A stretch of DNA of 55,466 nucleotides from an uncultured Solirubrobacteraceae bacterium (GTDB taxonomy: Bacteria; Actinomycetota; Thermoleophilia; Solirubrobacterales; Solirubrobacteraceae): the NCBI GenBank assembly GCA_902806175.1, contig CADCVQ010000119.1:1-55466 (forward strand), written 5' to 3'. Shown piece after piece: positions 31,677-49,621 of this stretch; position 1 is the stretch's first letter, and the number at the start of each line of letters is the position of its first letter. The notes beneath the pieces are model-generated. The model had not been told where the DNA came from. It searched no databases and saw only the letters and a program-made list of their open reading frames with translations. Position numbers and translations under genes: made by a program.

Positions 31677-31684
31677 TCCCGCGC

Positions 31685-31714: not shown

Positions 31715-31723
31715 GGCCCGAGC

Positions 31724-32128: not shown

Positions 32129-32166
32129 CCGCGCGACGAACTCTCGACGAGCGGACGAGCAGTCCA

Positions 32167-34137: not shown

Positions 34138-34144
34138 CGGCTCG

Positions 34145-34219: not shown

Positions 34220-34226
34220 TGGCGCG

Positions 34227-35069: not shown

Positions 35070-35072
35070 GCG

Positions 35073-36095
35073 TTGCCGGTCCCCCGCCTGCTGCGCCGCC
35101 TGCTCTTCGCACCGGCCGTCCTGCTCGTGGCGCTGCTCGTCTTCGCCGCGATGCCGGTGCTGCTGCTCGCCGCGGCGATCGCGTCGCCGTTTCTGCCCGG
35201 ACGGATGCGCGCCCTGCGGATCCTCGGCTTCGCGGTCGTCTACCTGGCACTGGAGGTCCTGATGCTCCTCGCGCTCGGCGCGCTCTGGCTCGCGGCGGGA
35301 TTCGGCCGGCAGCTGGACGCCCCGCGCATGCAGCGCGCGCACTACCGCCTGGCCGGATGGTTTCTGCGTGTGCTGATGAGCACCGCGCGGCGAGCCTTCA
35401 ACCTGCTCATCGAGGTGCACGGCTCGGCGCCACCGCCGCTGCCGCGCGTCCCGCTGATCGTGCTGGCCCGCCACGCCGGCCCGGGCGACTCGCTGCTGCT
35501 GCTGCACCAGCTGCTCAACGCCGAACGCCGCCGGCCGCGGATCGTGCTCAAGGACGTGCTGCAGTGGGACCCGCTCGTCGACATCGTGCTCAACCGCCTG
35601 CCGGCGCACTTCGTCTCGGCGTCGAGCCCGCGCGCCGACGCCATCGGGTCGATCGCCAGGCTGGCGTCGGGGATGGGCAGCGACGACGCGCTCGTGATCT
35701 TCCCCGAGGGCGGGAACTTCACCGAGAACCGCCGCCGCCGGTCGATCGCAAAGCTCGAGGAGCTCGGCCGACACGAGGAGGCCCGCCGCGCGCGCGAGCT
35801 GCGCCATCTGCTCGCACCGCACTCCGGCGGCGTGGTGGCGGCGCTGACCGGCTGCCCGACCGCCGACGTCGTCCTCGTCGCCCACACGGGGCTCGAAGAC
35901 CTGAGCACCGTCGTCGACCTGTGGCGCGGGCTTCCGCTCGACGACGACATCGACATCCGGATGTGGCACGTGCCCGCCGCCGACGTGCCGACCGACGACG
36001 CCGGACGGATCGACTGGCTGGGCAAGTGGTGGCGGCGGATGGACGACTGGATCGGCACCGAACGCAATCCGACGGAGGAGCACCATGGATCTTGA
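35073..36095 (+). CDS. Membrane-bound PlsC-like acyltransferase
   Basis: A 340-residue protein. Two or three N-terminal transmembrane helices (LLFAPAVLLVALLVFAAMPV; YLALEVLMLLALGALWLA) precede a glycerolipid acyltransferase domain. Its motif I reads LARHAGPGDSLLL (HxxxxD variant with His and Asp), and motif III FPEGGNFTENRRRR (substrate phosphate binding). It would transfer acyl chains to lysophospholipid-type acceptors at the membrane. The TTG start at 35073 lies 3 nt after the patatin stop; the next ORF overlaps it by 11 nt. Confidence 0.85.
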   Translation: MPVPRLLRRLLFAPAVLLVALLVFAAMPVLLLAAAIASPFLPGRMRALRILGFAVVYLALEVLMLLALGALWLAAGFGRQLDAPRMQRAHYRLAGWFLRVLMSTARRAFNLLIEVHGSAPPPLPRVPLIVLARHAGPGDSLLLLHQLLNAERRRPRIVLKDVLQWDPLVDIVLNRLPAHFVSASSPRADAIGSIARLASGMGSDDALVIFPEGGNFTENRRRRSIAKLEELGRHEEARRARELRHLLAPHSGGVVAALTGCPTADVVLVAHTGLEDLSTVVDLWRGLPLDDDIDIRMWHVPAADVPTDDAGRIDWLGKWWRRMDDWIGTERNPTEEHHGS

Positions 36096-36828
36096 GGTCG
36101 AGCTGCAGGCCGCCGCGGACGACGACCAGACGCAGGAGTCGCTCGTCCTGACGCACCCCGACGGGCGAACGGAGCGGTTTCGCCTGCACGAGTACTCCCG
36201 CGTCTACGCCGTCCCCGGCCTGTATGAGGAGGTCGTCCAGCGCCGGCTGCAGTGCGCGTCACCGCGCCGGCTCGCCGACCTGCTGGTGACGTGCGCCGCC
36301 GACGCGGGGGTCGAGTCCGCCGAGCTTTCAGTCTTCGACCTGGGCGCGGGCAACGGCGTGGTGGGGGAAGAGCTTCGCGCGCGCGGTGTCGCGACGCTCC
36401 TGGCCTCAGACAACGTCGCCGCTGCGCGCGACGCGGCGCTGCGCGACCGGCCCGGGCTCTACGCCGAGTACCTCGTCGGTGACACCGACGATCTACCGCA
36501 GGTCGCCGATCTCATCGGCGCCCACCGGCTCAACGGCCTCGTCGCCGCCGGCGCGCTCGGCCTCGGCCACATCTCGGCAGGCAGCTTTCATCGGCTGTGG
36601 AGCGCCTTCGCCGGCGAGGCGTGGTTTGCCGTCAGCGTTCACGAGGAGCTGGCCGAGCCGGGCGCAAGCGACTTCGGCGACTACCTCGCCGAGTTCGCGC
36701 AGCGCGGCGACTGGGGCGACATCGTGGTGCGCGAGCGGTTTCGCCATCGCCTGACGATGGCCGGCGCGCCGATCCACTACCTCGCGATCGTCGCGCGCAA
36801 GGGACCGGCGGCGGCGCCCGAACGCTGA
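36085..36828 (+). CDS. SAM-dependent methyltransferase-like protein
   Basis: A 247-residue protein. The SAM-binding motif is LSVFDLGAGNGVVGEELRAR near residue 82, followed by LLASDNVAAARDAALRDRPG (acidic end of strand 2) and the Asp-rich VGDTDDLPQVAD. The rest matches class I methyltransferase topology, though the usual catalytic motif region is unlike characterised members. The start overlaps the acyltransferase end by 11 nt and has a GGAGG site inside it, so translation is coupled. The acceptor is unknown; a lipid is plausible from the operon. Confidence 0.8.
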   Translation: MDLEVELQAAADDDQTQESLVLTHPDGRTERFRLHEYSRVYAVPGLYEEVVQRRLQCASPRRLADLLVTCAADAGVESAELSVFDLGAGNGVVGEELRARGVATLLASDNVAAARDAALRDRPGLYAEYLVGDTDDLPQVADLIGAHRLNGLVAAGALGLGHISAGSFHRLWSAFAGEAWFAVSVHEELAEPGASDFGDYLAEFAQRGDWGDIVVRERFRHRLTMAGAPIHYLAIVARKGPAAAPER

Positions 36829-36853
36829 TCAGCCGGCACGGCATCGGGCCGGT

Positions 36854-37501
36854 TCACCGGCAGCCGGCTGTGTCGGGCAGCTCGATCTCGCCGTGGACGA
36901 GTGCGAGGATGACGGCATGAAGGCGGCCGCGCGCGCCGAGCTTGCGCGTGGCGTTGCGGACGTGCGTCTGGACGGTCTCCGGCGACAGAAACAGATCCAG
37001 TGCGACCTGCTCTGTCGTGTGGCCCTGTGACAGCATCCCGAGGACCTGCGCTTCGCGCTTGGAGATCCTGGCTGCGCCGTCGCCGGCGGACCGGTCGCGC
37101 ATCCTCGCCACGAGCCGATCGACGTAGGTGCGTCCCTCGGCGCTCGCGCGAATGGCCTCGGCGAGATGCTCGATCGGCGACGACTTCAGGACCAGGGTAC
37201 GCGCGCCGCTGGCGACCGCCTCGTCGATCAGCGCGGCGTCGAGCGAGCCGGTGTACAGGACAAACGCGGTCGCCGAGCCCTCCTGCGACAGGGCCTTGGC
37301 GAGGTCGGTGCCGCTGCCGTCGCCGAGGTCGATGTCGACGAGCGCCACGGTCGGCTTGCGGTCCCGGATCATGCGCGTTGCCTGCCGCACGCTGCCGGCC
37401 GAGCCGAGCATCCGAAATCCATGACGAGGCAACAGCAGCTCGAGACCCTGGCGGACCGGCGGATGGTCCTCCACCACGACGATCTCGATCTGCGCGCTCA
37501 C
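36854..37501 (-). CDS. NarL/FixJ-family response regulator
   Basis: A 215-residue regulator. The receiver has VVVEDHPPVRQGLELLL (acidic pair), VALVDIDLGDGSG (phosphorylated Asp), LYTGS (Thr) and VLKSS (Lys). The LuxR-type HTH is ISKREAQVLGMLSQGHTTEQ then VALDLFLSPETVQTHVRNAT. It is the last gene of a four-gene signalling operon reading leftward from 42196, 11 nt after the HD-GYP gene, so it is the likely transcriptional output. GTG start at 37501. Confidence 0.9.
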   Translation of the reverse strand: MSAQIEIVVVEDHPPVRQGLELLLPRHGFRMLGSAGSVRQATRMIRDRKPTVALVDIDLGDGSGTDLAKALSQEGSATAFVLYTGSLDAALIDEAVASGARTLVLKSSPIEHLAEAIRASAEGRTYVDRLVARMRDRSAGDGAARISKREAQVLGMLSQGHTTEQVALDLFLSPETVQTHVRNATRKLGARGRLHAVILALVHGEIELPDTAGCR

Positions 37502-37512
37502 AGCTGGGCGTC

Positions 37513-38973
37513 CTAGTTGGACATCAGCGACTGGACGGAGCGGATCTCGTCCATCGACGAGAAGAAGGCGTCGAGCACCTCCGGATCGAAATGCTTGCCG
37601 CGCTCGCGCGTCATCCAGGCGACGGTCGTCTCCAGCGACCAGGCCGGGCGGTAGACGCGATCTGATGTCAATGCGTCGAAGACGTCGGCCACCGCGACGA
37701 TCCTGCCCTCCAGCGGGATCGCCGTGCCAGACAGCCCGCACGGATAGCCCGTGCCGTCGAACTTCTCGTGATGGGTCTTCGCGATCAGCGCCGCGAGCTC
37801 CAGCAACCCGCTGGAGCAGTCGCGCAGCATCTCGTGACCGACAGCGGCATGGGTCTCGATCGCGAGGCGCTCGTCGGCGGTGAGCGGACCCGCCTTGAGC
37901 AGGATGGTGTCGGGAATCGCGATCTTGCCGACGTCGTGCAGCACGCTGGCGAGCTCGAGCGACTCGGCATGCAGGCCGAACTTCTGGCCGATCGCCGCGC
38001 AGTAGTGCCCGACGCGCTTGAGGTGCCGGCCGATGCCGGGATCGCGATACTCGGCCGACTGCGCCCAGCGGTGGATCGCCTCGGCCTGCAGCACGCGGCC
38101 CTGGGCAGCCGCCGCTTCGAGGCGCTGCAGCGCCTCGGTCAGCGCGCTCGTGCGCTGCGCCAAGACGTCTTCCAGATGCAGGCGCGCCGTACGCTCGCGT
38201 GCCTCGACGTCGCGTCGTCGCAGCGCGTTCATCACGCCGATCAAGACGGCGGAGCGGCGGACGGGCTTGCTGAGGTACCCGTAGGCGCCGAAGTCCATCG
38301 CGACCTGCGCGATTCCGGGGTCCTCCAGCGCGCTGATCAGCAATGTCGCCGTTTCGGGGTGCTCGCACAGCGCGAAGCGGATGAGGTCCAGGCCCGTCTC
38401 GCCGGGCATGCTCACATCGCTGAGCAGCAGGGGGATCGTCTCGTGCTCGAGCGCGTAACGGGCCTCGCGCGCGCTGCCGACGGCGCGCGCGTCGTAGCCC
38501 GCCTGGCAGAGCATGCTGACGAGCAACTCGCGCACCGCCGCGTCGTCGTCGACGACGAGGATGCGCCCGGAGGCAAGCTCGGCAGGCGCAGCACGATCGT
38601 TGGCGTGCTGCAGCGCGAGGCCCTGCGATGCGGGCGCAGCCGTGCTCTCCAGCTTCGCGTACTCCCCCTCCAGCTCGCTGCGCAGCGCTTTGATGGCCTC
38701 CGCCAGCCGGACGCCATCGGCGCTTGGCAGGGGGTGGTCGGGCGCGAGGCTGCGCTCGAGCTCGAGCGCAAGCTCCGAGCCGCGCAGCAGCCCGAACGTC
38801 CCGAGCGAGCCGGCTAGCTTGTGCGCGTCGCGCTCGGCGCGGACCCGCAGCGCATGGTCGAGCGTGCCCACCGCGATCGCGGCGACGGCCGCCTCGACCG
38901 TCCTGACGCGCTGCTGGAAGTCGTCCTTGTGGGAACGGAAGATCCGTTCCAGGCCACTGGCCAGCTCGTTCAT
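37513..38973 (-). CDS. Hpt-receiver-HD-GYP c-di-GMP phosphodiesterase
   Basis: A 486-residue three-domain protein. Residues about 1-105 are an Hpt phosphotransfer domain (DAHKLAGSLGTFGL, phospho-His H51). Residues 137-255 are a receiver (ILVVDDD, Asp186 in LLSDVSMPGETG, Lys in YLSKP). Residues about 295-460 are HD-GYP: H346-D347 in VLHDVGKIAIPD, and HHEKFDGTGYPCGL at 401-414 with the intact GYP motif, so hydrolysis of c-di-GMP is expected. The combination means it can relay phosphate to, or be switched by, the upstream hybrid kinase. The ATG at 38973 overlaps the stop of the receiver gene (ATGA). Confidence 0.92.
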   Translation of the reverse strand: MNELASGLERIFRSHKDDFQQRVRTVEAAVAAIAVGTLDHALRVRAERDAHKLAGSLGTFGLLRGSELALELERSLAPDHPLPSADGVRLAEAIKALRSELEGEYAKLESTAAPASQGLALQHANDRAAPAELASGRILVVDDDAAVRELLVSMLCQAGYDARAVGSAREARYALEHETIPLLLSDVSMPGETGLDLIRFALCEHPETATLLISALEDPGIAQVAMDFGAYGYLSKPVRRSAVLIGVMNALRRRDVEARERTARLHLEDVLAQRTSALTEALQRLEAAAAQGRVLQAEAIHRWAQSAEYRDPGIGRHLKRVGHYCAAIGQKFGLHAESLELASVLHDVGKIAIPDTILLKAGPLTADERLAIETHAAVGHEMLRDCSSGLLELAALIAKTHHEKFDGTGYPCGLSGTAIPLEGRIVAVADVFDALTSDRVYRPAWSLETTVAWMTRERGKHFDPEVLDAFFSSMDEIRSVQSLMSN

Positions 38974-39359
38974 GGGGTCGTCTCCTCGCGACCGAGGATC
39001 GTCGCGATCTGCTCGGTGAGCGTCATTGGGTCGAAGGGCTTGGTCAGGGTGCCCGCCACACCGAGCTGGGCAAAGCGGCGGCGATCGGCGCCCTGTGCCT
39101 TGGCCGTCAGGAGGATCACCGGGATGTCGCTGGTCTGCGGGTCCTCCTGCAGGCGCGCGAACGTCGCGGGTCCGTCGAGGTCGGGCATCATGACGTCGAG
39201 CAGGATCGCGTCGGGGCGCTCGGCGCGCGCCATCGCGATCGCGCTGCTGCCGTCGCCGGCAGCCGAGACGCGCCAGCCGCCGACGGCCTGCAGGCTGAGC
39301 GCCGCCACCTCGCGGATGTCCTCCTCGTCATCGACGAGCAGGATGTGCTTTGGCCTCAT
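38970..39359 (-). CDS. Single-domain response regulator (receiver only)
   Basis: A 129-residue receiver with HILLVDDEEDI (acidic pocket), AILLDVMMPDLDGP (phosphorylated Asp), ILLTAKAQGAD (Thr) and LTKPFDPMTL (Lys). There is no output domain, so it is probably a phosphate shuttle or CheY-like effector between the hybrid kinase and the Hpt protein. The ATG at 39359 overlaps the kinase stop (ATGA), and its own stop overlaps the next start in the same way. The three genes are therefore tightly coupled. Confidence 0.92.
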   Translation of the reverse strand: MRPKHILLVDDEEDIREVAALSLQAVGGWRVSAAGDGSSAIAMARAERPDAILLDVMMPDLDGPATFARLQEDPQTSDIPVILLTAKAQGADRRRFAQLGVAGTLTKPFDPMTLTEQIATILGREETTP

Positions 39360-42196
39360 GATCGGGCTTCGCGTGGCGGCGTCGTGGTGCGGGGGCGGGC
39401 GAGCAGCGTCATGACCCGCCAATGGAGCTCTGCGGGCGTCATCTGGCCCTTCGTGAGCATCTGGGTGACGGCGCCGACAGCGCAGCGGTCGTGCTCGGCG
39501 GCCTGGACGTCACACGCGTCGTAGGCGACGATCGGCAGTGCGCCCAGCTGGCCATGGAGGCGAAGCCAGGCCTTGATCTCGACGCCGTCCACGTCCGGTA
39601 GATCGTTGTCCGCGACGATCAGGTCGGGGCGCATCTGCTCGTAGAGCTCGAGGGTCTGAGGCCCGTCGGTGCTCACGACGCTCATGACGCCGTGGCGCGC
39701 GAACAGCGCGCGCAGGATCTCGGCGACGGCGGGGTCTCGCTCCACGACCAGCACCCGGAAGGCGTCGTCGCGCGGCCCGATCGCCCGTTCCAGGCTGGCG
39801 AACAGGTTCGCCGTCGCGGCGGGCTTCTCGATCCAGTCGACGATCGCCCCGCGGCCGATCTCCTCGTCGGCGCGCGGTAGCACGCTCAGCACGACGATCG
39901 GGATCTTCTGGGTCGCGGCGTGCTCGCCGAGCGCCACGATCGTCTGCACGCCGCTCATGCCCGGCAGCACCAGATCGAGCAGGATCACGTCGGGCTGCTC
40001 GGCGATCGCGCGGTCGACGGCCTCCTCGCCGGTCCGCGCGAGGATCACGTGGTAGCCGCGCTCGACGAGCGCGGTTCCCGTGACCTCCAGGATCGCCTCG
40101 TTGTCGTCGCAGATCATGACCGACCCGAGCTTTCCCCCGGGGCGCGGCCGGTACTCGTCGCCGGCATCGGGCGTGGTCGGCACGACGAACGAGAACGTGC
40201 TGCCCTCGCCCGGCGTGCTGCGCGCCCAGATCCGGCCGCCGTGGTGCTCGACGATCGAGCGGCAGATCGCCAGGCCCAACCCGGTGCCACCCCTCTGCCG
40301 GGAATCCGACGAGTCGACCTGCTGGAAGCGCCCGAAGATCGTTTCGAGCTTGTCGGGCGGAATGCCGCGTCCGCTGTCGCTGATCGAGAACAGGACGTCG
40401 TCGCTGCGGCGCTCGGAGATGATCTGGACGGTTGCGCCGGGGGGCGAGAACTTGACCGCATTGCTGATGAGGTTGGTCAGCGTCTGCATGATGCGGTCGG
40501 CGTCGGCCTCGAACGCCGCGGGCGCGGCGTCGACGGCCAGCGTCACGCCGGCACCGGTCGCCGTCGGCAACATGGCCTCCGTGGCGCGGGCGATCAGGTC
40601 CGCCGCGTCGCACGTGGCATCGCGCAGGTGTTCGACGTCGGAGTCCAGGCGCTCGAGGTCGAGGATGTCGTTGATCAGCCGCACGAGGCGGTCGGTGTTC
40701 TGCACGGCGATCTGGATCATGCGCTGGGCCGCGTCGGGCAGTGGTCCCAGGACGCCGCTCTCGAGCAGGCCCAGGGAGCCGCGGATCGAGGTCAGCGGGG
40801 TGCGCAGCTCATGGCTGACGACGGAGGTGAACTCCTCCTTGGCCCGTTCCACCTGCCGGCGCTCGCTGATGTCGCGGAACACCACGACGGCGCCGCGGAT
40901 GCGGGCGCCCTCGATGATCGGCGTGCTCGTGTACTCCACGCCGAAGCACGTGCCGTCCTCGCGCCAGTAGACGTCCTGGTCGCTGTGGTGGATCGTTCCG
41001 TCCTGCAGCGACGCGTGCATCGGGCATTCCTGCGTCGGATAGGGCGCGCCGTCGGGCTTGGTGTGATGCAGCGTCTCGTGCAGGTCGCGTCCGGCGAGCT
41101 GCCCGGGCTCGTAGCCGGTCATGCGCGCCGCGGCGGGGTTGGCGAACGTGATCGTGCCCCGCGCGTCGGTCCCGACGACCCCCTCTCCGGCGGCGTCGAG
41201 GATCAGCGCATGGCGCATCGACAGCTCCCTGCCGTTGGCGAGCGTGCGCATGTCGGCGAACGTCATCGTCGTGCGCACGAACGCCGCCACGAGCGTCATC
41301 CCCGCCAAGACCTCGGCGACGTCGTTGAGGCCGCGCCAGTGGTCATAGGCGAGCAGGGCCAGACCGACGATGGCGAAGCTGATCGTCACGACGAGCATCG
41401 GCCAGGTCTGGTCTCGGGAGCTCTTCACGATCGACGGCTTGTGCCAGCCCGCGAAGGTGAGCAGCAGCATCAGCGCGGGCCAGCCGGCGTCGAGCAGGGT
41501 TCCGAACGCATAGTCACCGGCGGCGGCCTGGTAGAGGTAGGCGGTGTCGAGGACGACCTGCAGCAGCCAGATGACGCCGATCAGGGTCCACAGGCGGCCG
41601 GGACGCCCACCGCTGATCGCGAAGACCCCGATCAGCAGGGCGAGAATCAGCGCGTCCATGAGCGGATAGGCGAGGTTCGTCGTCACCGCCGCGAGGCTTG
41701 CGCCGGTGCTGGCGAGGATCGGCTGCACGAGCAACGCCGCAGCGATCGCGGCGATCGCCAGGCCGCCGACGACGGCGTCGATCCACAGGCTCTTGCGAAA
41801 CCGCGCGAGGCCGGCCTTCATCAGCGCCAGCACGGCTGCGATCGACAAGCCGTAGTACGTCAGCCAGAGCGCGTCGCTCGCGGACGGATACGGGGCCGCG
41901 CGCTGGTCTTGATAGACGACGAAGTACACGATCTCGGCGCCCGCCCAGCAGAGCATCCCCGCCCCGAACAAGGTCCACGGCAGGCGCTGCTGTGCGATCA
42001 GCCGCGCGCGAGCCAGACACAGCAGGCCGGGCACGATGAACAGCGCCACGAAGAGCCACTCGTAGCCGTCGCTGCTCGGGTCTCCCGGACCGCCGGCGAC
42101 GGCCGTCACGAAGACGGCCAGGCCGACCACGCCGGCGACCCACAGCAGTCGCACGCTCCACCTCACCACGGGGGAGAAGGACGCAAGTGAGAACAT
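39356..42196 (-). CDS. Hybrid histidine kinase with membrane sensor, PAS and two receivers
   Basis: About 946 residues. The first 310 residues hold eight or nine transmembrane helices, a MASE-like integral sensor. A PAS domain follows (LDAAGEGVVGTDARGTITFA, ending VVFRDISERRQVE). Then come HisKA (VSHELRTPLTSIRGS) and HATPase (NLISNAVKFSPPG, DSGRGI, GTGLGLAI) domains. Two receivers end the protein: SVMICDDNEAI with LLDLVLPGMSG, and RVLVVERDPAV with VADNDLPDVDG. ATG 42196 is chosen because the membrane domain starts there; the frame stays open to 42298. It heads the four-gene operon and should feed phosphate to the receiver, the Hpt-HD-GYP protein and perhaps the NarL-type regulator. Confidence 0.88.
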   Translation of the reverse strand: MFSLASFSPVVRWSVRLLWVAGVVGLAVFVTAVAGGPGDPSSDGYEWLFVALFIVPGLLCLARARLIAQQRLPWTLFGAGMLCWAGAEIVYFVVYQDQRAAPYPSASDALWLTYYGLSIAAVLALMKAGLARFRKSLWIDAVVGGLAIAAIAAALLVQPILASTGASLAAVTTNLAYPLMDALILALLIGVFAISGGRPGRLWTLIGVIWLLQVVLDTAYLYQAAAGDYAFGTLLDAGWPALMLLLTFAGWHKPSIVKSSRDQTWPMLVVTISFAIVGLALLAYDHWRGLNDVAEVLAGMTLVAAFVRTTMTFADMRTLANGRELSMRHALILDAAGEGVVGTDARGTITFANPAAARMTGYEPGQLAGRDLHETLHHTKPDGAPYPTQECPMHASLQDGTIHHSDQDVYWREDGTCFGVEYTSTPIIEGARIRGAVVVFRDISERRQVERAKEEFTSVVSHELRTPLTSIRGSLGLLESGVLGPLPDAAQRMIQIAVQNTDRLVRLINDILDLERLDSDVEHLRDATCDAADLIARATEAMLPTATGAGVTLAVDAAPAAFEADADRIMQTLTNLISNAVKFSPPGATVQIISERRSDDVLFSISDSGRGIPPDKLETIFGRFQQVDSSDSRQRGGTGLGLAICRSIVEHHGGRIWARSTPGEGSTFSFVVPTTPDAGDEYRPRPGGKLGSVMICDDNEAILEVTGTALVERGYHVILARTGEEAVDRAIAEQPDVILLDLVLPGMSGVQTIVALGEHAATQKIPIVVLSVLPRADEEIGRGAIVDWIEKPAATANLFASLERAIGPRDDAFRVLVVERDPAVAEILRALFARHGVMSVVSTDGPQTLELYEQMRPDLIVADNDLPDVDGVEIKAWLRLHGQLGALPIVAYDACDVQAAEHDRCAVGAVTQMLTKGQMTPAELHWRVMTLLARPRTTTPPREARS

Positions 42197-42327
42197 GTGC
42201 GCGTCGTCCCCGGCGGTCGACGCACCGTATTGCTGAGTACCCTCGTCCCTGTCGCGAACCACACAGGGAGTGTCGACAGGACCTGGCGCCGTGACCATCC
42301 GTCAAACGCCCGATCTGTCAGCGGGCG

Positions 42328-43443
42328 CTAATCGATGAGTCCGAGGCGCAGCGCCGTCGCGACCGCCGACGGCTTATCCGAAACCCCGAGCTTGCGGTAG
42401 ATGTTCTCCATGTGCGTCCTGACCGTGGCCGCGCTGACGGTGAGCAGCTCGGCGGTCTGCGGGGCCGACAGCCCGTGTGCGGCGAGCTGGATCATCTCGA
42501 TCTCGCGCGGGGTCAGCAGCGGCGCGGCCAGCTCGCCGCGCCGGCGTGCGAGGAACTGGCCGAGCTCATGCGAGATCCCGTACAGCGAACGCAGGAGGCG
42601 CTCGCCGACCCTGATCTCATGATCGGCCGTCAGCTCGACGATCGCCAGAACCTCGTCGCGCACGAGCGCGGGGATCGCGACGGCTCCGGCGAGCCCGTCG
42701 TGGCGCGGTGCGCCGTCAGGTGGCTCGGCGTCGTGCGTCGCGCCGGCGAGCGTCCAGCTCAGGGGCTTGCGCGTGATCCAGGCGCGCCCCGCCAGCCCGC
42801 TCTCGCGCCGCACCTCGATCGGCGCCGCCGCCTCGGGCCGTGCGTCGACGCCGCTCTCCTGCCAGAACACGCGCGGGACGAGCACGCCGGCGCAGGGCAG
42901 CCAGAACACGCCCCGGACGCAATCGAGCGCGCCGGCCAGACGGGCCATGAGGCGGTGTGCGCCCGCCTCGAGGTCCTCCCACATGACCAGCGCCTCCCCG
43001 ACCGCGACGTGCGCGGCGATCTCGCGTTCGGCACGCCTGCCGTCGGTGAGGTCGTGAAGGACGCCGATGACGCGCTGTGGCCGGCCGCCGCGTCGCTCGG
43101 TGACCGAAAGCGTCACTCGTAGATGGCGCAGATCTCCGTTGGGCCGCGTGATCCGGTACTCCGCCGCGCGCGGCTCGCCGCCGTCCATCACCTCAGCAAT
43201 GGTCTTGGCGAGGTATGCGCGATCGTCCGGGTGCGTCCGGGCGAGGACATACTCGGTCGACGGCTCGATCTCTGCGGGCGCGAGGCCGAAGATGCGATAG
43301 AGGTTGTCCGACCACAGCAGCTGGCGCTCGGAGATGACGTACTCCCAGCTGCCGGTCTGGCCAATCTGCTCCGCTGAGGCCAGCAGGCTCTGCAGTCGCC
43401 TGCCCTCGGCCGGCGTGACGAACGCGTCTGTTGATCGCTCGAT
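42328..43443 (-). CDS. PAS-GAF-LuxR transcriptional regulator with atypical start
   Basis: A cytosolic sensor-regulator of about 371 residues. A PAS fold occupies residues about 15-130 (SWEYVISERQLLWSDNLYRI, THPDDRAYLAKTI, then VTERRGGRPQRVIGVLHDLT). A GAF domain follows at about 140-295. The C-terminal LuxR HTH is LLTPREIEMIQLAAHGLSAP then LLTVSAATVRTHMENIYRKL. The first canonical start codon (GTG 43191) would cut the PAS domain in half. The frame stays open to a TAG at 43453-43455, and the only sensible start is ATC at 43443, 6 nt after a TAGGAT -10 box. It is leaderless with a rare start codon, or there is a sequence error. Confidence 0.8.
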   Translation of the reverse strand: MERSTDAFVTPAEGRRLQSLLASAEQIGQTGSWEYVISERQLLWSDNLYRIFGLAPAEIEPSTEYVLARTHPDDRAYLAKTIAEVMDGGEPRAAEYRITRPNGDLRHLRVTLSVTERRGGRPQRVIGVLHDLTDGRRAEREIAAHVAVGEALVMWEDLEAGAHRLMARLAGALDCVRGVFWLPCAGVLVPRVFWQESGVDARPEAAAPIEVRRESGLAGRAWITRKPLSWTLAGATHDAEPPDGAPRHDGLAGAVAIPALVRDEVLAIVELTADHEIRVGERLLRSLYGISHELGQFLARRRGELAAPLLTPREIEMIQLAAHGLSAPQTAELLTVSAATVRTHMENIYRKLGVSDKPSAVATALRLGLID

Positions 43444-43618
43444 GTCGGAATCCTAGCGCCAGCGTGGCAGCTTCATACAAACTTGGATCCGGCGGTCAAT
43501 ACCCGGATCCGGGTAGACAGCACTGACGGTGTGAGGCCGATGGGCTGTCGGAAACGGGCGAGCGCTCGCGACGGCCGACGTTCAGCACCCGCTGCGCTCG
43601 CGCGCCGATGAACCACTA
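43444..43618. other. Promoter region between LuxR gene and riboswitch
   Basis: It holds the divergent promoters of the PAS-GAF-LuxR gene (TAGGAT at 43450-43455, minus strand) and of the riboswitch transcript. A perfect 14-bp palindrome, ACCCGGATCCGGGT (43501-43514), could be an operator. No gene is seen. Confidence 0.45.
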
Positions 43619-43712
43619 ACCCTGAGCAGCACTCCGAAACAAGGCACTCCCGCCGTGAGGCGGGTTCGCAAAGCCACGGAACTCCGCCGGAGTCGGCCGG
43701 GCCGCCGAGGGA
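43619..43712 (+). promoter_or_regulatory. c-di-GMP-I (GEMM) riboswitch
   Basis: The RNA matches the GEMM-I pattern. CCCGCC (43649-43654) pairs with GGCGGG (43659-43664) around a GTGA tetraloop of the GNRA type, then comes the signature CGCAAAGCC (43667-43675), with GGC (43643-43645) closing on its GCC. A second hairpin (ACTCC 43681-43685, GGAGT 43689-43693) is followed by the GGCCGGGCCGCCG element, which corresponds to the conserved AGCCGGGUUGCCG. CCCT/AGGG can close the base. It starts about 165 nt before the WxL-like gene, with GGTGGAGG as ribosome site further down, so it should control that operon by c-di-GMP binding. Confidence 0.84.
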
Positions 43713-43785
43713 AGTCACGCGAGGCATGAGGCCTGGCGGGCGACCTCGAAGGAGCGCCTGTTCGCAGATGGTGGAGGTAGTTCCC

Positions 43786-44352
43786 ATGTCTCATCTCAAT
43801 TCGCGGGTCGCACGGATCGTCGCCGGACTCGCCGTTGCGTGCACCTGCGCGGTTGCCCCGATGGCGGCGCAGGCCGCTGACACCAACGCGACCGGCACCC
43901 TGACGGCCGGCTCGCTGAGCAACACCGCTCCGGCGATCACGGCGTTCAGCGCGACGCTGACCGGCGTCAGCCAGACCATCACCACGAACGTCGGCACGTG
44001 GAGCGTCAACGACGCGACCGGCAGCAACGCCGGCTACAGCATCACGGTCGCTGCGACCGCTCCGACCGTCGGAGGCTCGGCGCCCGCCGCCGGCACAGGC
44101 GGCTCGCTGACGATGGGGGCGACGACGGCGACCGCCGCCGCCGGCAACCCCGCCGCGACCGCGCCGGTCTCGAGCGCGCAGCTGCTGAGCACGTCGGCCG
44201 TCACGATCGACAACGCCGCGGCGGGCACGGGCCAGGGCCAGTGGAACTTCGCGGCGGACGCGAACAACCTCTCGGTCGTCATCCCCGGCAACGCCAGCGC
44301 CGACGCCTACAGCAGCACGCTGACGTACACGACCGCTGCTCCGGTCGTCTGA
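43786..44352 (+). CDS. WxL-like secreted surface protein
   Basis: A 188-residue exported protein with signal peptide IVAGLAVACTCAVAPMAAQA. The mature part is all-beta and Thr/Ser/Ala-rich, laid out like WxL domains: a first strand pair with GTWSVNDATGSNAGYSITVA, a central SSAQLLSTSAVTI, and a C-terminal AYSSTLTYTT. The strict Trp-x-Leu motifs are altered (WSV, WNF, and YTT for the terminal one), so I call it WxL-like. WxL proteins attach to cell wall glycans and pair with DUF916 proteins, the type encoded next. The ATG at 43786 has a GGAGG site. Expression is predicted to be under the c-di-GMP riboswitch. Confidence 0.78.
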   Translation: MSHLNSRVARIVAGLAVACTCAVAPMAAQAADTNATGTLTAGSLSNTAPAITAFSATLTGVSQTITTNVGTWSVNDATGSNAGYSITVAATAPTVGGSAPAAGTGGSLTMGATTATAAAGNPAATAPVSSAQLLSTSAVTIDNAAAGTGQGQWNFAADANNLSVVIPGNASADAYSSTLTYTTAAPVV

Positions 44353-44382
44353 CACGCCATGACCCCGCGTGCCGGAGTGACG

Positions 44383-44778
44383 ATGACAACACCGCATCCT
44401 CATGCCGGGGCAGTCGTTCTCCTCGCCCTGCTGGCGCTCGCCGCATTCGCGGCGGCGCCGGCAGCAGCCGCAGAGCCCCCAGCTCCCAGGTCCGCGACGT
44501 TTGCGCTCTCCGCGATCACCGACTCGGGCAGCCTTCGGCTGCGCGGCGTCCCCGGCCGCACGCTGCGGCGCTCGGTGCTCGTGCGCAACGCCTCGGGCCG
44601 GCGCATCACCGTGCGCCTGCAGCCCGCCGACATCCGCAACGCCGCCAACGGCAACGCGGATTACGTCACCACCCGCCTCTCCGGCGCCGGTCGCTGGGTA
44701 ACGCTCGCCGACACCGCGGTGCGCCTCGAGCCGAAGGCCTCGCGCAGGGTCGCCTTCTCCGTACGCGTCCGGCCATGA
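44383..44778 (+). CDS. DUF916-like protein, N-terminal half
   Basis: About 131 residues. The signal peptide is AVVLLALLALAAFAAAPAAA. It is followed by the start of an Ig-like DUF916 (WxL-interacting) domain: LRGVPGRTLRRSVLVRNASG, then ITVRLQPADIRNAANGNADY, WVTLADTAVRLEPKASRRVA. The domain stops abruptly in the middle of a strand at FSVRVRP. The missing strands lie in the next frame, so the gene is either split by a one-base loss just before 44775 or read as two coupled proteins. ATG 44383 has GGAG 6 nt upstream and starts the signal peptide; ATG 44359 is an alternative. Confidence 0.72.
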   Translation: MTTPHPHAGAVVLLALLALAAFAAAPAAAAEPPAPRSATFALSAITDSGSLRLRGVPGRTLRRSVLVRNASGRRITVRLQPADIRNAANGNADYVTTRLSGAGRWVTLADTAVRLEPKASRRVAFSVRVRP

Positions 44779-45500
44779 CGAGCGGCGCTTCGCACTACGC
44801 CGGCATCGTCGCCTTCGACGCCGCCGACGTCACGGCCGCCGCCCGCGACAAGAAGCGCAGGGGCACGTCCTTCACGATCTCTCGCATCACCCGCCAGGCG
44901 CTGCCGATCACGGTCCGCCTGCCCGGGCCGCTCACGCGCAAGCTGACGCTGCGCTCGGTCAAGCTCGTCGTCACGCCCGCCGGCGCGGGCCTCGTGCTCG
45001 GCCTGCGCCCGGGCGGGACGGTCCTCACCCAGGGCGCGAAGGTCAAGCTGCGCGTCTCGCGCGCCCAGCGCACGATCCTCAGGGACGCCAGCGCCCTCGG
45101 CCAGCTGTTTCCCGGCTCCAAGCTCGACTTCCGCATCCCCTGGAGCGGCCGGCCGACAGCGGGCGAGTACCGCGTTCGCGGCGTCATCCGCCCCGCGGGA
45201 GCCGCGCCCGTCTGGATCGACCGGATCGTGACGTTCACGCCGGCGAAGGTCAAGGCGCTCAAGAGCGAGACGCCTCCCGTCGCTGCAGACACAGCCGCGA
45301 CGGCCGGTCTGCCGTCCTGGGTCTGGCTGGCACTGACCGGCGCAGGCGCGCTCCTGCTGGCGCTGGCACTCGCCTTCTGGAGGTTCGCGCGGCGGGTCGG
45401 CCGGTCCTCCGGGGCGCCTTCGGCGCCGCCGCCGCTGGTGCGCCGCGACTCCGTGCCCGACGCTCGCGAACACGATCGACACGACCGAACCGCGGCGTGA
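44775..45500 (+). CDS. DUF916-like protein, C-terminal half with membrane anchor
   Basis: About 241 residues, overlapping the preceding frame by ATGA. It resumes the DUF916 domain exactly where it broke (ASHYAGIVAFD, as in the GDHYAGI strand of the family), continues with a second beta domain (LPITVRLPGPLTRKLTLRSV, FPGSKLDFRIPWSG, GEYRVRGVIRP), and ends with one transmembrane helix (WVWLALTGAGALLLALALAF) and a basic cytoplasmic tail. This is the usual DUF916 layout: secreted beta domains with a C-terminal anchor. A single inserted C near 44770 would join the two frames into one protein of about 370 residues. Confidence 0.75.
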   Translation: MTSGASHYAGIVAFDAADVTAAARDKKRRGTSFTISRITRQALPITVRLPGPLTRKLTLRSVKLVVTPAGAGLVLGLRPGGTVLTQGAKVKLRVSRAQRTILRDASALGQLFPGSKLDFRIPWSGRPTAGEYRVRGVIRPAGAAPVWIDRIVTFTPAKVKALKSETPPVAADTAATAGLPSWVWLALTGAGALLLALALAFWRFARRVGRSSGAPSAPPPLVRRDSVPDAREHDRHDRTAA

Positions 45501-45533
45501 CTCGCGGCCCCCGCGCTTCGCCGGCTGATCGCG

Positions 45534-45947
45534 TCAGGCGACCGTCAGGGCATCCACGGCCAGCGCCGCTCGCCGCAGCACGTCGGCGAGCGCCGTGCCC
45601 TGCTGCGGCGCCAGGCGCTCCAGGACCACGTCGCCTGCCAGCCGCAGGTCGTGTGCGAGCCGGTCGATCGGGAAGTTGCGGCCGCGGAGCACCCGGGCGA
45701 GCCAGCGTGCCTGCTCGTCGAGGTCGGTCACGCCGAGGACGTCGCCGACCGCCCACGACAGCAGCCACTGGTTGTCGTGGCGACACCAGTCCCGGCCCGC
45801 CTCCCCGTATCGCTCCTGCTCGTCTGGGTAGTGGGCGTGGTAGCGGTCGCAGACGCCGCGCGCGAGGACGACGAGGTCCAGCCGCTGCCCGCCGAGCTCG
45901 GCGACCGCGGGCGGCGGCGCCCCGCTGGGCGGGCGCGGGATGCTCAC
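45534..45947 (-). CDS. Hypothetical protein, helical, HxxQWLLSW motif
   Basis: A 137-residue protein of unknown function, mostly helical, rich in Arg, Asp and Trp. Distinctive stretches are GGQRLDLVVLARGVCDRYHA, YGEAGRDWCRHDNQWLLSWA and the final helices (LARVLRGRNFPIDRLAHDLR). It is soluble and has no signal peptide. The GTG at 45947 overlaps the ABM gene's stop (GTGA), and the ABM gene overlaps the GGDEF region in the same way, so it ends a four-gene operon. Confidence 0.65.
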   Translation of the reverse strand: MSIPRPPSGAPPPAVAELGGQRLDLVVLARGVCDRYHAHYPDEQERYGEAGRDWCRHDNQWLLSWAVGDVLGVTDLDEQARWLARVLRGRNFPIDRLAHDLRLAGDVVLERLAPQQGTALADVLRRAALAVDALTVA

Positions 45948-46261
45948 TCGGCCACGACCTCGTAGGTGTGCAGGTGCTCCAGGCGCCGCAGGGAGATGTC
46001 CTTCTTCAGTTCGGGATCGATCCGCTCGTGCGAGACCCTGTGCTCGGCGCTCTTCATGTACGCCTTGAACGCGTCGCGATCGCGCCACCTGCTGACCATG
46101 AGGATGTCGCCGGGGTCGCGATCGGATTGCCACACCTGCAGGTCGATGAAGCCATCCGCCTCGTCGGCCAGGTGGGCGCGGCTGCGAAACGCGCTCACGA
46201 GCTCCGGCGCCCGGTCAGGCGCAATCTCGAGGCGGGACATCGAGACGTACATTCCGGTCAC
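45944..46261 (-). CDS. Antibiotic biosynthesis monooxygenase (ABM) domain protein
   Basis: A 105-residue ABM-type protein: MSRLEIAPDRAPELVSAFRS, then VWQSDRDPGDILMVSRWRDR and FKAYMKSAEHRVSH, the pattern W-x-D-x2-F-x2-Y-x2-S-x2-H of the dimeric ABM/IsdG-like fold. Members are cofactor-free oxygenases or heme degraders. The GTG start at 46261 overlaps the stop of the B12/GGDEF gene. Why such an enzyme sits with c-di-GMP genes is unclear. Confidence 0.85.
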   Translation of the reverse strand: MTGMYVSMSRLEIAPDRAPELVSAFRSRAHLADEADGFIDLQVWQSDRDPGDILMVSRWRDRDAFKAYMKSAEHRVSHERIDPELKKDISLRRLEHLHTYEVVAE

Positions 46262-47096
46262 GGCCTCGCTGGTGTTTGGAGGGGGTCGACATGTCCGTCG
46301 GCGTCAAAGACGCAGTCTCGTCCGGCCGCCTTGGCGGCGTAGAGCGCCACGTCGGCTGCGAGCACGATGGCTCGGATCTCCGACGATAGCGTCGCCATGC
46401 CGATCGTCACGGTCACCGGCAGGTCGCCGTCGTCGGCGATCACGCCCCTGATCCGCAGGGCGGCCCGGCGTGCCTGCTCGCGGCCGGCCCGCGGCAGCAG
46501 CACCGCGAACTCGTCGCCTCCGATGCGCGCGGCGAAGTCGTGGCTGCGCGTCGCGCCGGTGATGGCTGCACCGATGAGCCGCAGCAGACGGTCGCCGGCG
46601 GCATGGCCGTGGGTGTCGTTGACCGCCTTGAACGCGTCGACGTCGATCATCAGCAGCGCCCCGGCGACGCTGCTGTCGGCGCAGACTTGTGCATGCATGC
46701 GGTCGTCGAAGGCGCGCCGGAGGACGTCGGCGATCATGCGCAGCCCGAGCACGTGCTGCGGCCTTCCGCGGCGGCGAGCAGGATGCGCTCGCGCGACCGC
46801 GCCCGCGCGACGGTCAGCTTGTCGAAGAGCTTGACCAGCACGGCCTGGCTGACGGCGGTCGCGAGGTGCTCGTCGGCGACCGTGATCGCGTTGGCCTCCC
46901 ACAGCTCGCCGATCCGCGTCATCGCCGGCTCGATGATCAGCGACTGGATCGCCGAGGGCGTCAGGCCGGCCTCCAGTGCCTCGTCGACGACATGCTCCGC
47001 GGCGGAGGTGTCGGCGACGCGCAGCGCGTCGCCGTAGCGGCGCGTCAACGCCGGCGCTTGGACGTCGGCCTCGCGCCGTTCGCGGCTCGCGGGCAC
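46258..47096 (-). pseudogene. B12-binding/GGDEF fusion, frameshifted
   Basis: From GTG 47096 the frame encodes a B12-binding cap domain (YGDALRVADTSAAEHVVDEA, then IEPAMTRIGELWEANAITVA and DEHLATAVSQ), which positions cobalamin or light-sensing B12 in regulators. The following B12-binding domain starts ILLAAAEG but shifts frame near 46761 by one lost base; the next frame continues QHVLGLRMIADVL and, without the rest of that domain, runs into a GGDEF domain beginning RRAFDDRM (normally preceded by DxLTGLPN). The GGDEF part is complete from there: DVDAFKAVNDTHGHAAGDRL, ARIGGDEFAVLLP, YAAKAAGRD. It might still be translated alone from ATG 46737. Confidence 0.7.
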
Positions 47097-47097
47097 C

Positions 47098-47699
47098 TCA
47101 GATCCCGCTGCTTGCGCGCTGCGGCGCAGCCGGCAGTGCGACACCCGCGACGGGCACGGCCGCACCGACGTACGGCCCCTGAGCCTGGCCCACGCCCGCG
47201 TCCTCGAGGATCCGTTGCGTCTGCGCGTCGCGGACACCGTCGGCCGCGGTCGCGACGCCAAGCCCGTCGGCGAGATGCACGAAGGCGCGCACGAACTGCT
47301 CGTCAGACGGAGCGGACTGCAGGTTCGCGATCCGCGAGCGACGTCACGTGGACGTCGACGGCGACCGCCTGTCCGCTCCGTGCGACTGCGACGGCGTGCC
47401 CGATCAGCAGATCGTGAAGCTTGGGTCGTGAGCCCGAAGCGCTCGGCGACCGGATCGAAGCCCGCGCACCCGATGAGCTGTCCGTTGCCGCTGGGCAGGC
47501 GGAGCGTCAGCTCGTGCTTTGGCGGCGCTTCGCCGGCGAGGTCGACGATCGGCTCGGCGTAGACGACGAAGCGGTCCTCGTCGAGGGCAGCTCGCAGCAT
47601 CTGCAGCAGGCTGTGCTGAAGTGGTTCTGCCGCGTGGTCTGGCTGCAGTCCCTCGATGGCTTCGTCTGCGAAGTCATCGTCCGAGGTTCGGTCGGCCAC
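47098..47699 (-). pseudogene. Decayed EAL-domain c-di-GMP phosphodiesterase
   Basis: GTG 47699, with AGGAG upstream, begins an EAL domain: LDEDRFVVYAEPIVDLAGEA, then KHELTLRL (EAL motif altered to ELT) and GFDPVAERFGLTT. The match continues in a second frame (GHAVAVARSGQAVAVDVHVT-SLADRE), then jumps to a third with the C-terminal motif VHLADGLGVATAADGVRDAQ and GQAQGPYVGAAVP (normally AEGVE and QGYxF). About 60-80 residues with the metal and catalytic residues (DDFGTGYS, KxD) are missing. It cannot hydrolyse c-di-GMP. The B12/GGDEF gene starts right after its final stop. Confidence 0.72.
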
Positions 47700-47729
47700 T
47701 GTAAGTCTCCTGGCTGGCGACAGGTTCAG

Positions 47730-47960
47730 GTGAGCTTAGCCGGGACCGTGACGTTCTCCATAAGACGCCCTGACGGAACCGAGCGCGGCCGGGTCGCGCT
47801 GCGCGACGACGACCTCGGTGACGTGCGCTGGACGATATCCGCAACCGAGCCGAACACCCTGACAGTCATTCCGGCCCGTGGGTACCCGGTCCTTACGCTC
47901 ACGCAGACGCGAGCGCTCACAGGGCCGCAGTCGAAACCTGCTGACATCCACGGCGCATAG
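47730..47960 (+). CDS. Small hypothetical protein
   Basis: A 76-residue open frame from GTG 47730. The sequence alternates hydrophobic and polar residues like a beta structure (VTFSIRRPDGTERGRVALRD; WTISATEPNTLTVIPARGYP). No family is recognised and no clear ribosome site is present. Its codon use is less GC-biased than its neighbours. It diverges from the EAL gene. It could also be non-coding. Confidence 0.35.
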   Translation: MSLAGTVTFSIRRPDGTERGRVALRDDDLGDVRWTISATEPNTLTVIPARGYPVLTLTQTRALTGPQSKPADIHGA

Positions 47961-48117
47961 GCGCGATCGGCAGGAGTACCCTTTTCGACGCTGTAGGAGC
48001 AGTCGCAGAAACGTGAGGCTCTGGGGTAGCCCGCCGAGGCCCCTGACGCACACGGTCTTGCCATAAGGCACGACACGGATCGTGTGAAAGCGGCCCGATC
48101 CGCTCGCACAGCAAGCC
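47961..48117. other. Intergenic stretch, no gene seen
   Basis: No domain, convincing promoter or hairpin was recognised. Base composition is slightly less GC-rich than the surroundings. Confidence 0.4.
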
Positions 48118-49016
48118 TCAATCGGGCGTTGGCCTCGCGACAAGGAGCTTTCGGCTCGACGTGATCGTGGCCCCGTGCCAGCGACCGTCGGCAAAGGGAG
48201 GCGTCCGTTCGACGAACGTACGCAGGGCACGAAGGTCGGTCTTCGTTGCGACGATCTCCAAGTCCCTCAGCGTCCGCTCGAGCTGGCCGGCGATGAACTG
48301 GTGAGTCGCGGCATCCGGAGGCGCTTGGAGGGTGCCGACCAACGTCCGATCGACGACGAGATGCAGCCCCGCGGCGGCGAGCATCGAGGGATACGCCTTG
48401 GCGTTCATGGCGCCCGGCATGCGGTCTCGCACGCTCTCGAACCACTCAGCTCGGCCGCCTCGAGACGATTCCAGATGCCCGGATGCCCAAGGTCGTCTGC
48501 GAACCGGATGAACGTCGGATCCGCTCGTTCGAGCACGCACAGCAGCCCGCGCGGATCGAGGAGCGACCTGATGCGCCGAAGCGTGGCGACCTCGTCGCCC
48601 GCATGATGGACGGCCATGGCTGCCCACGCCAGATCGCAGCGACCCAGGCTCGCGAGGTCTTCGTCGAGGTCGAGCTGGCGAGTCTCGACCCGGCCCGCGT
48701 GCCCGAGCCGCGTTGCACGAGCTTCGGCGCGTTCGAGCATCGCGCGTGAGCCGTCGACCGCGAGGACAGACGCGGACCCAAACGCCTGCGCGAGCAGGGC
48801 CGTACCTACACCGGGACCACAGCCGAGATCGATGACGCGGCGAACCTGTGCCCCAGCGTCGCCGAGCAGGCCGGCGCACACGGCGATCGCCTCTTCGACC
48901 AAGCCGGCCAGGCCGCCAGCTTCAACACCATGACCCCGCACAGCATGACCGGCTACGGCGGCCCTGCCGAGCTCCTGACCATCCTCGATCACCACGGCGA
49001 ACGCGCCCACCTTCAC
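48118..49016 (-). pseudogene. SAM-dependent methyltransferase, frameshifted
   Basis: From 49016 the frame gives a class I methyltransferase: RRVIDLGCGPGVGTALLAQA (SAM motif I), SVLAVDGSRAMLERAE, ETRQLDLDEDLASLGRCDLA and LDPRGLLCVLERADP. Near 48450 it runs out of frame after NRLEAAELSG; the next frame resumes WFESVRDRMPGAMNAKAYPS, then GLHLVVDRTLVGTLQAP and ends KLLVARPTPD at 48118. One missing G in the run would restore GAG CTG GAG TGG. The N-terminus before AGLVEEAIAVCAG does not match the family well and may also be altered. Confidence 0.75.
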
Positions 49017-49246
49017 GCCTGACCGCGACCGGCCGGTCTGTCCGGCGACCTGTGACTCGCCGTGGCGCCTTCAAACCGATCCCATTGTGACGCAGGCTGC
49101 ACTCGCCGCCCGGCGGCTATCACGTGCGATGGGAGTCGGGCGCGGTCGGCGTGAGGAGCGGCTACGCGCTGTCGGCCGTTATACGTGACGGGCGTCGCGG
49201 ACGCCCGCGCGACGCCCGCAGCCGGCCAGTCAATAGCGTGCCGCCG
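49017..49246. other. Intergenic stretch with a leaderless promoter at its end
   Basis: No gene is supported. A TAGCGT -10 box at 49234-49239 lies 7 nt before the ATG of the RraB-like gene, whose transcript is therefore probably leaderless. Confidence 0.45.
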
Positions 49247-49621
49247 ATGGCGGAGTGGTACGAACAGCTTCTCGAGCTTCAGCTGCGCGCGAACAGGGAC
49301 ATCTGGGCCGATCTGCAGGAGCACCTCGGCGCGGACACGCAACTGCGGCTGGGCTTCATCTACCTCGCGCCCGGGGAGCCCGAAGCGCGTGAGCTCGTCG
49401 CCTTCCTGCGCGCGGAGACCGACTACGACGTCGACGCGCACGCGCGCGAGGAGGACGATCCGCAGGCGGAGCAGTCCTGGTTCGTCATGGGGACGACGCA
49501 GCCCACGCCGGTCACGCTCGAGCTGCTCGACGACTGGGCGGAGTGGATGATCGCGGCCGGTGCCGTCCACGGCCCGTGCGCGTTTGACGGATGGTCGGCG
49601 CAGCTCGTCGGCGACGCATAG
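49247..49621 (+). CDS. RraB-family protein (ribonuclease E inhibitor-like)
   Basis: A 124-residue protein of the RraB/DUF695-like fold: LRLGFIYLAPGEPEARELVA, FLRAETDYDVDAH, SWFVMGTTQPTPVTLELLDD and the conserved end AEWMIAAGAVHGPCAFDGWS. In enterobacteria RraB binds RNase E and limits RNA decay; the role in actinobacteria is family-based inference. ATG 49247 lies 7 nt after TAGCGT, and the domain starts there, which rules out the longer frame upstream. It is convergent with egtD. Confidence 0.85.
   Translation: MAEWYEQLLELQLRANRDIWADLQEHLGADTQLRLGFIYLAPGEPEARELVAFLRAETDYDVDAHAREEDDPQAEQSWFVMGTTQPTPVTLELLDDWAEWMIAAGAVHGPCAFDGWSAQLVGDA

What the first reader, a model, noticed from the sequence alone, without database searches (positions are those of the whole stretch)
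46258..47699. Graveyard of c-di-GMP genes: dead EAL plus B12-cap/GGDEF fusion
An EAL domain survives as three pieces in three frames with its catalytic core deleted. Directly behind it, a B12-binding sensor is cut within its second domain and joined at MIADVL/RRAFDD to a GGDEF domain. Yet the overlapping downstream genes remain intact and coupled. Either the strain has recently lost a B12- or light-responsive c-di-GMP switch, or the leftover GGDEF has been captured as a free-standing cyclase. This may affect how the nearby riboswitch is fed.
Basis: partly seen in the sequence, partly recalled or inferred. Interest (0 to 1): 0.66.

Follow-up and report, generated by a model that had tools for sequence, protein, structure and literature searches.

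The report
Half-dead B12/bilin light-sensor c-di-GMP operon
A Solirubrobacteraceae actinobacterium carries the broken remains of two c-di-GMP signalling genes, one of them a vitamin-B12 sensor fused to a c-di-GMP maker, while the two genes behind them stay intact; one of these encodes a protein predicted to fold like the pigment-binding proteins of cyanobacteria, so the wreck looks like a light-sensing operon that lost its output and kept its likely pigment half.

Summary
A congeneric genome (G002) carries the intact locus: an EAL gene, then a gene for B12 cap + B12-binding Rossmann + GGDEF. Against it the window shows four lesions: an EAL frame break near 47421, a ~230-bp frame-shifting EAL deletion near 47331, a 1-nt loss near 46757, and an in-frame 501-bp deletion at 46721/46720 that removes the B12 Rossmann domain and the DxLT start of GGDEF. 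Sixteen kb of other genes in this contig show no frame break, so this is local decay; substitution rates are not raised, so it is recent. The block lies in a 15-kb segment absent from that site in four congeners, with a frameshifted riboswitch-operon gene and a broken, horizontally acquired methyltransferase. New here: the intact downstream pair is an IsdG/HmuQ-like ABM protein and a stand-alone protein whose confident model matches phycobiliproteins and the photocobilin globin domain (Z about 14). The pair recurs across the class, in 6 of 10 loci beside a B12 sensor, once fused to B12-GGDEF. Best reading: a split, photocobilin-like c-di-GMP operon whose signalling half is dead. A captured active cyclase is unlikely.

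The parts
47098..47699 (-). EAL pseudogene in three frames: piece 1 ~47699-47421, piece 2 ~47421-47331, piece 3 ~47331-47098; ~230 bp of the core (G002 residues ~122-196: FELSE, DQFGTG, LKID) deleted
   Evidence: Pfam, tblastn with the intact G002 EAL protein, coding-frame scan
46734..47096 (-). B12 cap (four-helix B12-binding_2) ORF, GTG start, out of frame after ~46757; keeps W-x9-EH
   Evidence: PF02607 E 5e-13; motif scan
46757..46758 (-). approximate site of a 1-nt loss at the cap/Rossmann boundary (GGAAGGCCGCAGCACGTG)
   Evidence: alignment with G002; frame scan
46720..46721 (-). junction of an in-frame 501-bp deletion: B12 Rossmann domain, linker and start of GGDEF lost
   Evidence: alignment with G002 L019:6397-6897
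46258..46737 (-). GGDEF remnant ORF (MIADVLRRAFDD...), keeps DxDxFK, RxxD I-site and GGDEF; lacks the DxLT/N-R part
   Evidence: PF00990 profile positions 12-160 only; PDB matches
45944..46252 (-). intact ABM-fold protein, IsdG/HmuQ/MhuD-like; catalytic Asn replaced by Ser in all eight relatives compared
   Evidence: PF03992 E 5e-17; HmuQ model E 9e-11, below cut-off; PDB alignments; family comparison
45534..45947 (-). intact small helical protein predicted to be a stand-alone bilin-type globin (phycobiliprotein/photocobilin globin fold, motif WCxHDNQ), GTGA overlap with the ABM stop
   Evidence: alignment A1, AlphaFold2 pLDDT 92, fold search Z 14.2-13.6 to allophycocyanin, smURFP and SasPcob
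43633..43709 (+). c-di-GMP-I riboswitch aptamer
   Evidence: Rfam RF01051, 47 bits; same element in G002
43786..44352 (+). WxL-domain surface protein gene behind the riboswitch, intact
   Evidence: PF13731 E 1e-6
44359..45500 (+). second riboswitch-operon gene, frameshifted near 44769; intact in G002
48092..48905 (-). methyltransferase segment 93% identical to a genome of another family (G043), frameshifted near 48445; intact 305-aa ORF in G043
34163..49247 (.). 15.1-kb variable block; in four congeners the flanking genes are adjacent (gap 35 to ~620 bp; 83 bp in G001)

Best explanation
The site is the recent wreck of a four-gene operon (EAL; B12 cap-Rossmann-GGDEF; ABM; bilin-type globin) that most likely worked as a split photocobilin-like light sensor controlling c-di-GMP. 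In the working form (G002), adenosylcobalamin bound between cap and Rossmann domain would be cleaved by light and change GGDEF activity; the EAL protein would oppose or modulate it; the ABM protein and the phycobiliprotein-like globin would supply or hold a linear tetrapyrrole next to the B12 module, as the fused globin does in photocobilins. In this genome the EAL gene and the sensor-cyclase gene are broken by four lesions, so no B12-controlled cyclase can be made, while the ABM and globin genes remain intact. Shown: the lesions, the intact relative, domain identities, the recurrent linkage, the globin-type fold of a confident model. Inferred: light sensing, bilin binding, what the ABM protein does, and why the last two genes survive (continued use, or too little time).
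For: Intact congeneric locus with the same gene order. Two large deletions and two frame breaks in the window. About 16 kb of other genes of this contig with intact relatives align in one frame; the listed ABC-transporter domains of this genome are near full length (59 matches) and 17 of 18 other GGDEF domains are whole, so lesions are local. Not accelerated: B12 cap 5 window-specific vs 3 G002-specific changes, GGDEF 8 vs 17, so loss is recent. The G002 CBD's best PDB relatives are photocobilins, E 6e-19, then CarH 2e-8; W-x9-EH kept. Downstream protein: phycobiliprotein/photocobilin globin fold. ABM+globin pair found in 10 loci; B12 sensor adjacent in 6: G002, window, G042 (fused CBD-GGDEF-ABM), G053 (PAS-GGDEF-EAL-B12), G060 (MerR-B12), G014 (divergent B12). 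No canonical heme oxygenase in 8 of 8 carriers, positive controls rang. ABM dN/dS 0.14, globin 0.35.
Against: No reads, no second strain of the species. Three of the four single-base breaks in the region (44769, 46757, 48445) are compatible with shortening of a CCC run, which is also an error type. In the G002 family the second light motif reads QHH, not E/DxH. The ABM family has Ser where IsdG/MhuD have the catalytic Asn, so bilin synthesis is doubtful. Foldseek E-values for the globin model are weak (best 0.02), and helical folds give high Z by chance more often. Only 9 of 299 class genomes sampled carry the globin at E<=1e-12.
Confidence: 0.72

Rival explanations
1. Captured cyclase: the GGDEF remnant (46737-46258), started at the ATG that overlaps the stop of the B12-cap frame, is a free-standing active diguanylate cyclase or c-di-GMP-binding protein.
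For: ORF open to its natural stop, ATGA coupling, GGDEF, DxDxFK and RxxD intact, slow protein evolution (8 window-specific vs 17 G002-specific changes).
Against: The DxLT motif and the residue before RR (Asn in G042, Leu here) are gone; Pfam and most PDB matches start inside the domain; no dimerising sensor; no relative found with this form.
Confidence: 0.08
2. Assembly or base-calling errors in a draft genome made the frame breaks; the gene is really a shorter, in-frame B12cap-GGDEF protein or fully intact.
For: Draft assembly in 183 contigs; three breaks fit CCC to CC; the 501-bp deletion is in frame; a second B12 gene of the genome (C106) is also broken by one base at the same boundary.
Against: About 16 kb of neighbouring genes without a break, whole ABC and GGDEF domains genome-wide; 501-bp and ~230-bp losses are not base-call errors; expected chance of five local breaks about 7e-4 under a generous error rate.
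Confidence: 0.15
3. The remnant ORFs are kept as a leader: their translation keeps the ABM and globin genes coupled, although the remnant proteins are useless.
For: GGDEF stop five bases before the ABM ATG; GTGA overlap to the globin gene; both downstream genes intact and constrained.
Against: Open frames are common by chance in 70% G+C DNA; no expression data.
Confidence: 0.25
4. Programmed ribosomal frameshifting joins B12 cap and the following domain.
For: Two B12 genes of this genome change frame at the same cap/Rossmann boundary.
Against: They need opposite shifts (-1 and +1), no slippery sequence seen, G002 and G042 are in one frame, C106 has no ortholog to test conservation.
Confidence: 0.02

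Closest known systems
Photocobilins, e.g. AbDPcob (B12-binding + globin-like + diguanylate cyclase) and SasPcob, PMC10979010
   Same: B12 cap + Rossmann domain with W-x9-EH, diguanylate cyclase output, a phycobiliprotein-like globin; best PDB sequence relatives of the G002 CBD; globin model Z 13.6 to SasPcob
   Different: Globin is a separate gene; an ABM protein and an EAL gene lie in the operon; in the window the Rossmann domain is deleted and the cyclase truncated
Bilin biosynthesis-associated globins (BBAG-2) with B12-binding protein and heme oxygenase, PMC10151467
   Same: Stand-alone bilin-type globin next to a B12-binding protein and a candidate heme-degrading enzyme
   Different: The enzyme is an ABM/IsdG-like protein, not a canonical heme oxygenase (none found in 8 carriers); output is c-di-GMP
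CarH-type B12 photoreceptors
   Same: Cap and Rossmann B12 fold, W-x9-EH; a MerR-B12 version is adjacent to the ABM/globin pair in G060
   Different: No DNA-binding domain here; QHH instead of E/DxH in the lower-ligand motif
IsdG/MhuD/HmuQ heme-degrading ABM proteins
   Same: ABM fold family, Trp and His kept
   Different: Catalytic Asn is Ser in all eight; score below the HmuQ cut-off

Membership tests
Photocobilin (B12 + bilin photoreceptor) | B12 cap plus Rossmann B12-binding domain | tested here: not met
   Window keeps only the cap; both domains present in G002
Photocobilin (B12 + bilin photoreceptor) | W-x9-EH adenosyl-pocket motif | tested here: met
   WEANAITVADEH in window and G002
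Photocobilin (B12 + bilin photoreceptor) | E/DxH lower-ligand motif | tested here: not met
   QHH in G002 and G042; destroyed by the frame break in the window
Photocobilin (B12 + bilin photoreceptor) | Globin-like bilin domain fused in the same chain | tested here: not met
   Separate gene at 45947-45534; fold match to the photocobilin globin
Photocobilin (B12 + bilin photoreceptor) | Binds cobalamin and biliverdin, responds to light | not testable with these tools
   Needs purified protein
Active diguanylate cyclase | GGDEF loop and DxDxFK metal site | tested here: met
   RIGGDEF and MIDVDAFK present
Active diguanylate cyclase | N-terminal DxLT...N-R segment | tested here: not met
   Deleted; Pfam match starts at position 12, G002 match at 3
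EAL phosphodiesterase | Complete EAL barrel with catalytic acidic residues | tested here: not met
   ~75 residues of core missing; even G002 reads DQFGTG, not DDFGTG
IsdG/MhuD-type heme oxygenase | Asn-Trp-His catalytic residues | tested here: not met
   Ser replaces Asn in all 8 sequences; Trp and His conserved
Phycobiliprotein-like bilin globin (BBAG/photoglobin) | Phycobiliprotein-like globin fold | tested here: met
   AlphaFold2 pLDDT 92; Z 14.2 phycobilisome chain, 13.9 smURFP, 13.6 SasPcob; sequence profile search found no PDB relative
Phycobiliprotein-like bilin globin (BBAG/photoglobin) | Cys-x-R/Q-Asp chromophore motif | tested here: inconclusive
   CxHD in 7 of 8, GxHD in G014; position in the bilin pocket not superposed

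The most novel reading that the evidence does not exclude
In this class of actinobacteria a B12 light sensor, an ABM-family protein and a stand-alone phycobiliprotein-like globin form one signalling system (a split photocobilin), with the ABM protein making or handling the bilin in genomes without canonical heme oxygenase; the window shows a strain that has just lost the c-di-GMP output and retains the pigment half.
Probability: 0.35. Interest if true: 0.62.

Novelty: new variant of a known kind. Interest (0 to 1): 0.42.

Why it matters
The gene decay itself is ordinary. Its value is that the intact neighbours point to an apparently undescribed arrangement: B12 sensor + diguanylate cyclase + IsdG-like ABM protein + stand-alone bilin-type globin, once fused CBD-GGDEF-ABM in a single frame. 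If the globin binds a bilin, this gives a testable split relative of photocobilins in non-photosynthetic actinobacteria and a candidate new source of its chromophore. The papers I could search did not mention ABM/IsdG proteins with photoglobins, but the founding photoglobin paper was not available to read.

Tried and rejected
Programmed frameshifting at the cap/Rossmann boundary: considered because a second B12 gene (C106) breaks at the same place; rejected because the shifts are opposite and relatives are in frame. Mobile-element signature at the borders of the 15-kb block: no tRNA, no convincing repeats. Relatives by peptide patterns in GTDB contigs: only G002 is a close relative, the rest match GGDEF alone. 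Viral contigs: no relative of the globin protein. Sequence search of the globin against PDB, single and profile: nothing. Pfam and NCBIfam on the globin: nothing. A DNA alignment of the EAL part alone was unreliable, so the EAL pieces were placed by tblastn instead. The dN/dS value printed for the WxL gene used a wrong frame and is not used; the EALc value likewise (redone).

Full report
What was checked. The window is contig C119 of a draft genome of 4.12 Mb in 183 contigs, 97% complete. Its nearest relative with this locus, G002, matches GenBank record JAUXSD010000176.1, a Solirubrobacteraceae metagenome-assembled genome.

The lesions. Pfam finds B12-binding_2 and the first quarter of EAL in the ORF 47699-46734, the last fifth of EAL in another frame (47292-47101), and a GGDEF domain, from profile position 12 on, in a third (46902-46258). 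G002 has the intact version: an EAL protein (L019:5213-6010) followed by a 450-aa protein with B12 cap, B12-binding Rossmann domain and GGDEF (L019:6017-7369), then ABM and a small gene. Comparison with G002 gives a frame change in EAL near 47421 and a loss of about 75 codons of the EAL core, out of frame, near 47331. The B12-GGDEF gene has a 1-nt loss near 46757 and an in-frame loss of 501 bp between 46721 and 46720. The last removes the Rossmann domain, the linker and the DPVTDLGS start of GGDEF. The coding-frame scan places frame changes at the same points.

Error or decay. Thirteen conserved genes of the window that have relatives in four congeners (about 11.8 kb) and the two large neighbours at 37.5-42.3 kb (4.4 kb) align in one frame. 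Genome-wide, the listed ABC-transporter domains are near full length and 17 of the other 18 GGDEF domains are whole. Lesions cluster in 44.77-48.45 kb. This favours real decay; a locally poor assembly cannot be excluded without reads, and three of the breaks would fit a shortened CCC run.

Age. Using G042 as outgroup, the window carries 5 unique amino-acid changes in the B12 cap against 3 in G002, and 8 against 17 in GGDEF. The remnants are therefore not yet drifting, which means recent loss (or, less likely, continued constraint on the GGDEF remnant).

Where the block lies. In G001, G002, G005 and G006 the genes that flank 34163-49247 in the window are adjacent, with gaps of 35 to about 620 bp. 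G002 keeps its copy of the c-di-GMP block on another contig in a different order. The block in the window thus sits at a site that is empty in congeners. No tRNA or repeat was found at its borders. Within it, the second gene of the c-di-GMP-I riboswitch operon is frameshifted near 44769, and an 815-bp methyltransferase segment, 93% identical to a genome of another family in which the gene is intact, is frameshifted near 48445.

The intact neighbours. The gene directly behind the GGDEF remnant encodes an ABM-fold protein, nearest to HmuQ and MhuD/IsdG heme-degrading proteins, below the HmuQ cut-off. All eight relatives have Ser where the IsdG family has its catalytic Asn, and keep the Trp and His. 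The next gene, overlapping by GTGA, has no Pfam, NCBIfam or PDB sequence match. It carries an invariant W-x-x-HDN and in 7 of 8 a CxHD motif, which suggested a bilin-type globin, since phycobiliproteins use CxRD and photoglobins CxQD (PMC10151467). The fold was then predicted from the eight-sequence alignment (pLDDT 92, pTM 0.87). The best structural matches are phycobilisome/allophycocyanin chains (Z 14.2, 2.2 A over 118 residues), smURFP (13.9) and the photocobilin SasPcob (13.6, 2.8 A over 119); Foldseek gives phycobiliproteins and globins first, at weak E-values. The guess was made before the search and met by it.

Linkage. The ABM-globin pair occurs in ten loci. A B12 sensor stands beside it in six: window and G002 (B12-GGDEF), G042 (B12-GGDEF-ABM in one 660-aa frame), G053 (PAS-GGDEF-EAL-B12), G060 (MerR-B12, CarH-like) and G014 (B12 protein, divergent, with a PAS-GAF-SpoIIE gene). 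In G008 and G032 the neighbours are a methylmalonyl-CoA mutase-like ORF (by eye) and a MeaB gene, MeaB confirmed by Pfam in G032. The globin was found in 9 of 299 class genomes at E<=1e-12. None of eight carriers tested has a canonical heme oxygenase; the same search rang in three control genomes.

Mechanism. The CBD of G002 is closest in PDB to photocobilins (E 6e-19), ahead of CarH (E 2e-8), and keeps W-x9-EH; the second motif is QHH instead of E/DxH. Photocobilin-cyclase fusions that bind B12 and biliverdin and respond to light are established (PMC10979010). By analogy the working locus would be a split photocobilin: B12-GGDEF sensor-cyclase, EAL partner, bilin globin, and an ABM protein that makes or handles the tetrapyrrole. 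Light sensing, bilin binding and ABM chemistry are inference. In the window the output half cannot be made.

Verdict. As decay it is ordinary; the module it exposes is a plausible new variant of a known kind.

Noticed in passing
G000:C106:7776-8477 (L114:1462-2163): A second B12 cap + Rossmann gene of this genome is broken by one extra base at the same cap/Rossmann boundary (GCCGTTCGAAGG), in the opposite direction to the window's break. No ortholog to test it.
   Followed up: partly
L097:4500-6479 (G042): One 660-aa frame joins B12 cap, B12-binding, GGDEF and ABM domains, the strongest sign that the ABM protein works with the B12-cyclase.
   Followed up: yes
window 48092-48905: 815-bp methyltransferase segment 93% identical to a genome of another family (G043), against 68-76% for other shared genes: recent horizontal transfer, now frameshifted.
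   Followed up: partly
window 44359-45500: Second gene of the c-di-GMP-I riboswitch/WxL operon frameshifted near 44769, intact in G002.
   Followed up: yes
window 18284-33371 and 34163-49247: Two blocks of about 15 kb each flank a single conserved gene (33372-34162); in G001 the outer genes lie within 42 and 83 bp of it: an insertion hot spot. G002 has its own ~12-kb insert at one of the two places.
   Followed up: partly
G000:C155:7952-8143 (L138, L143): A second, truncated relative of the bilin-type globin in the same genome (profile 70-134 only).
   Followed up: no
L140:4615-5151 (G283), L141:4607-5125 (G035): Globin relatives without the ABM gene, directly downstream of an ~820-aa ORF not identified.
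   Followed up: no
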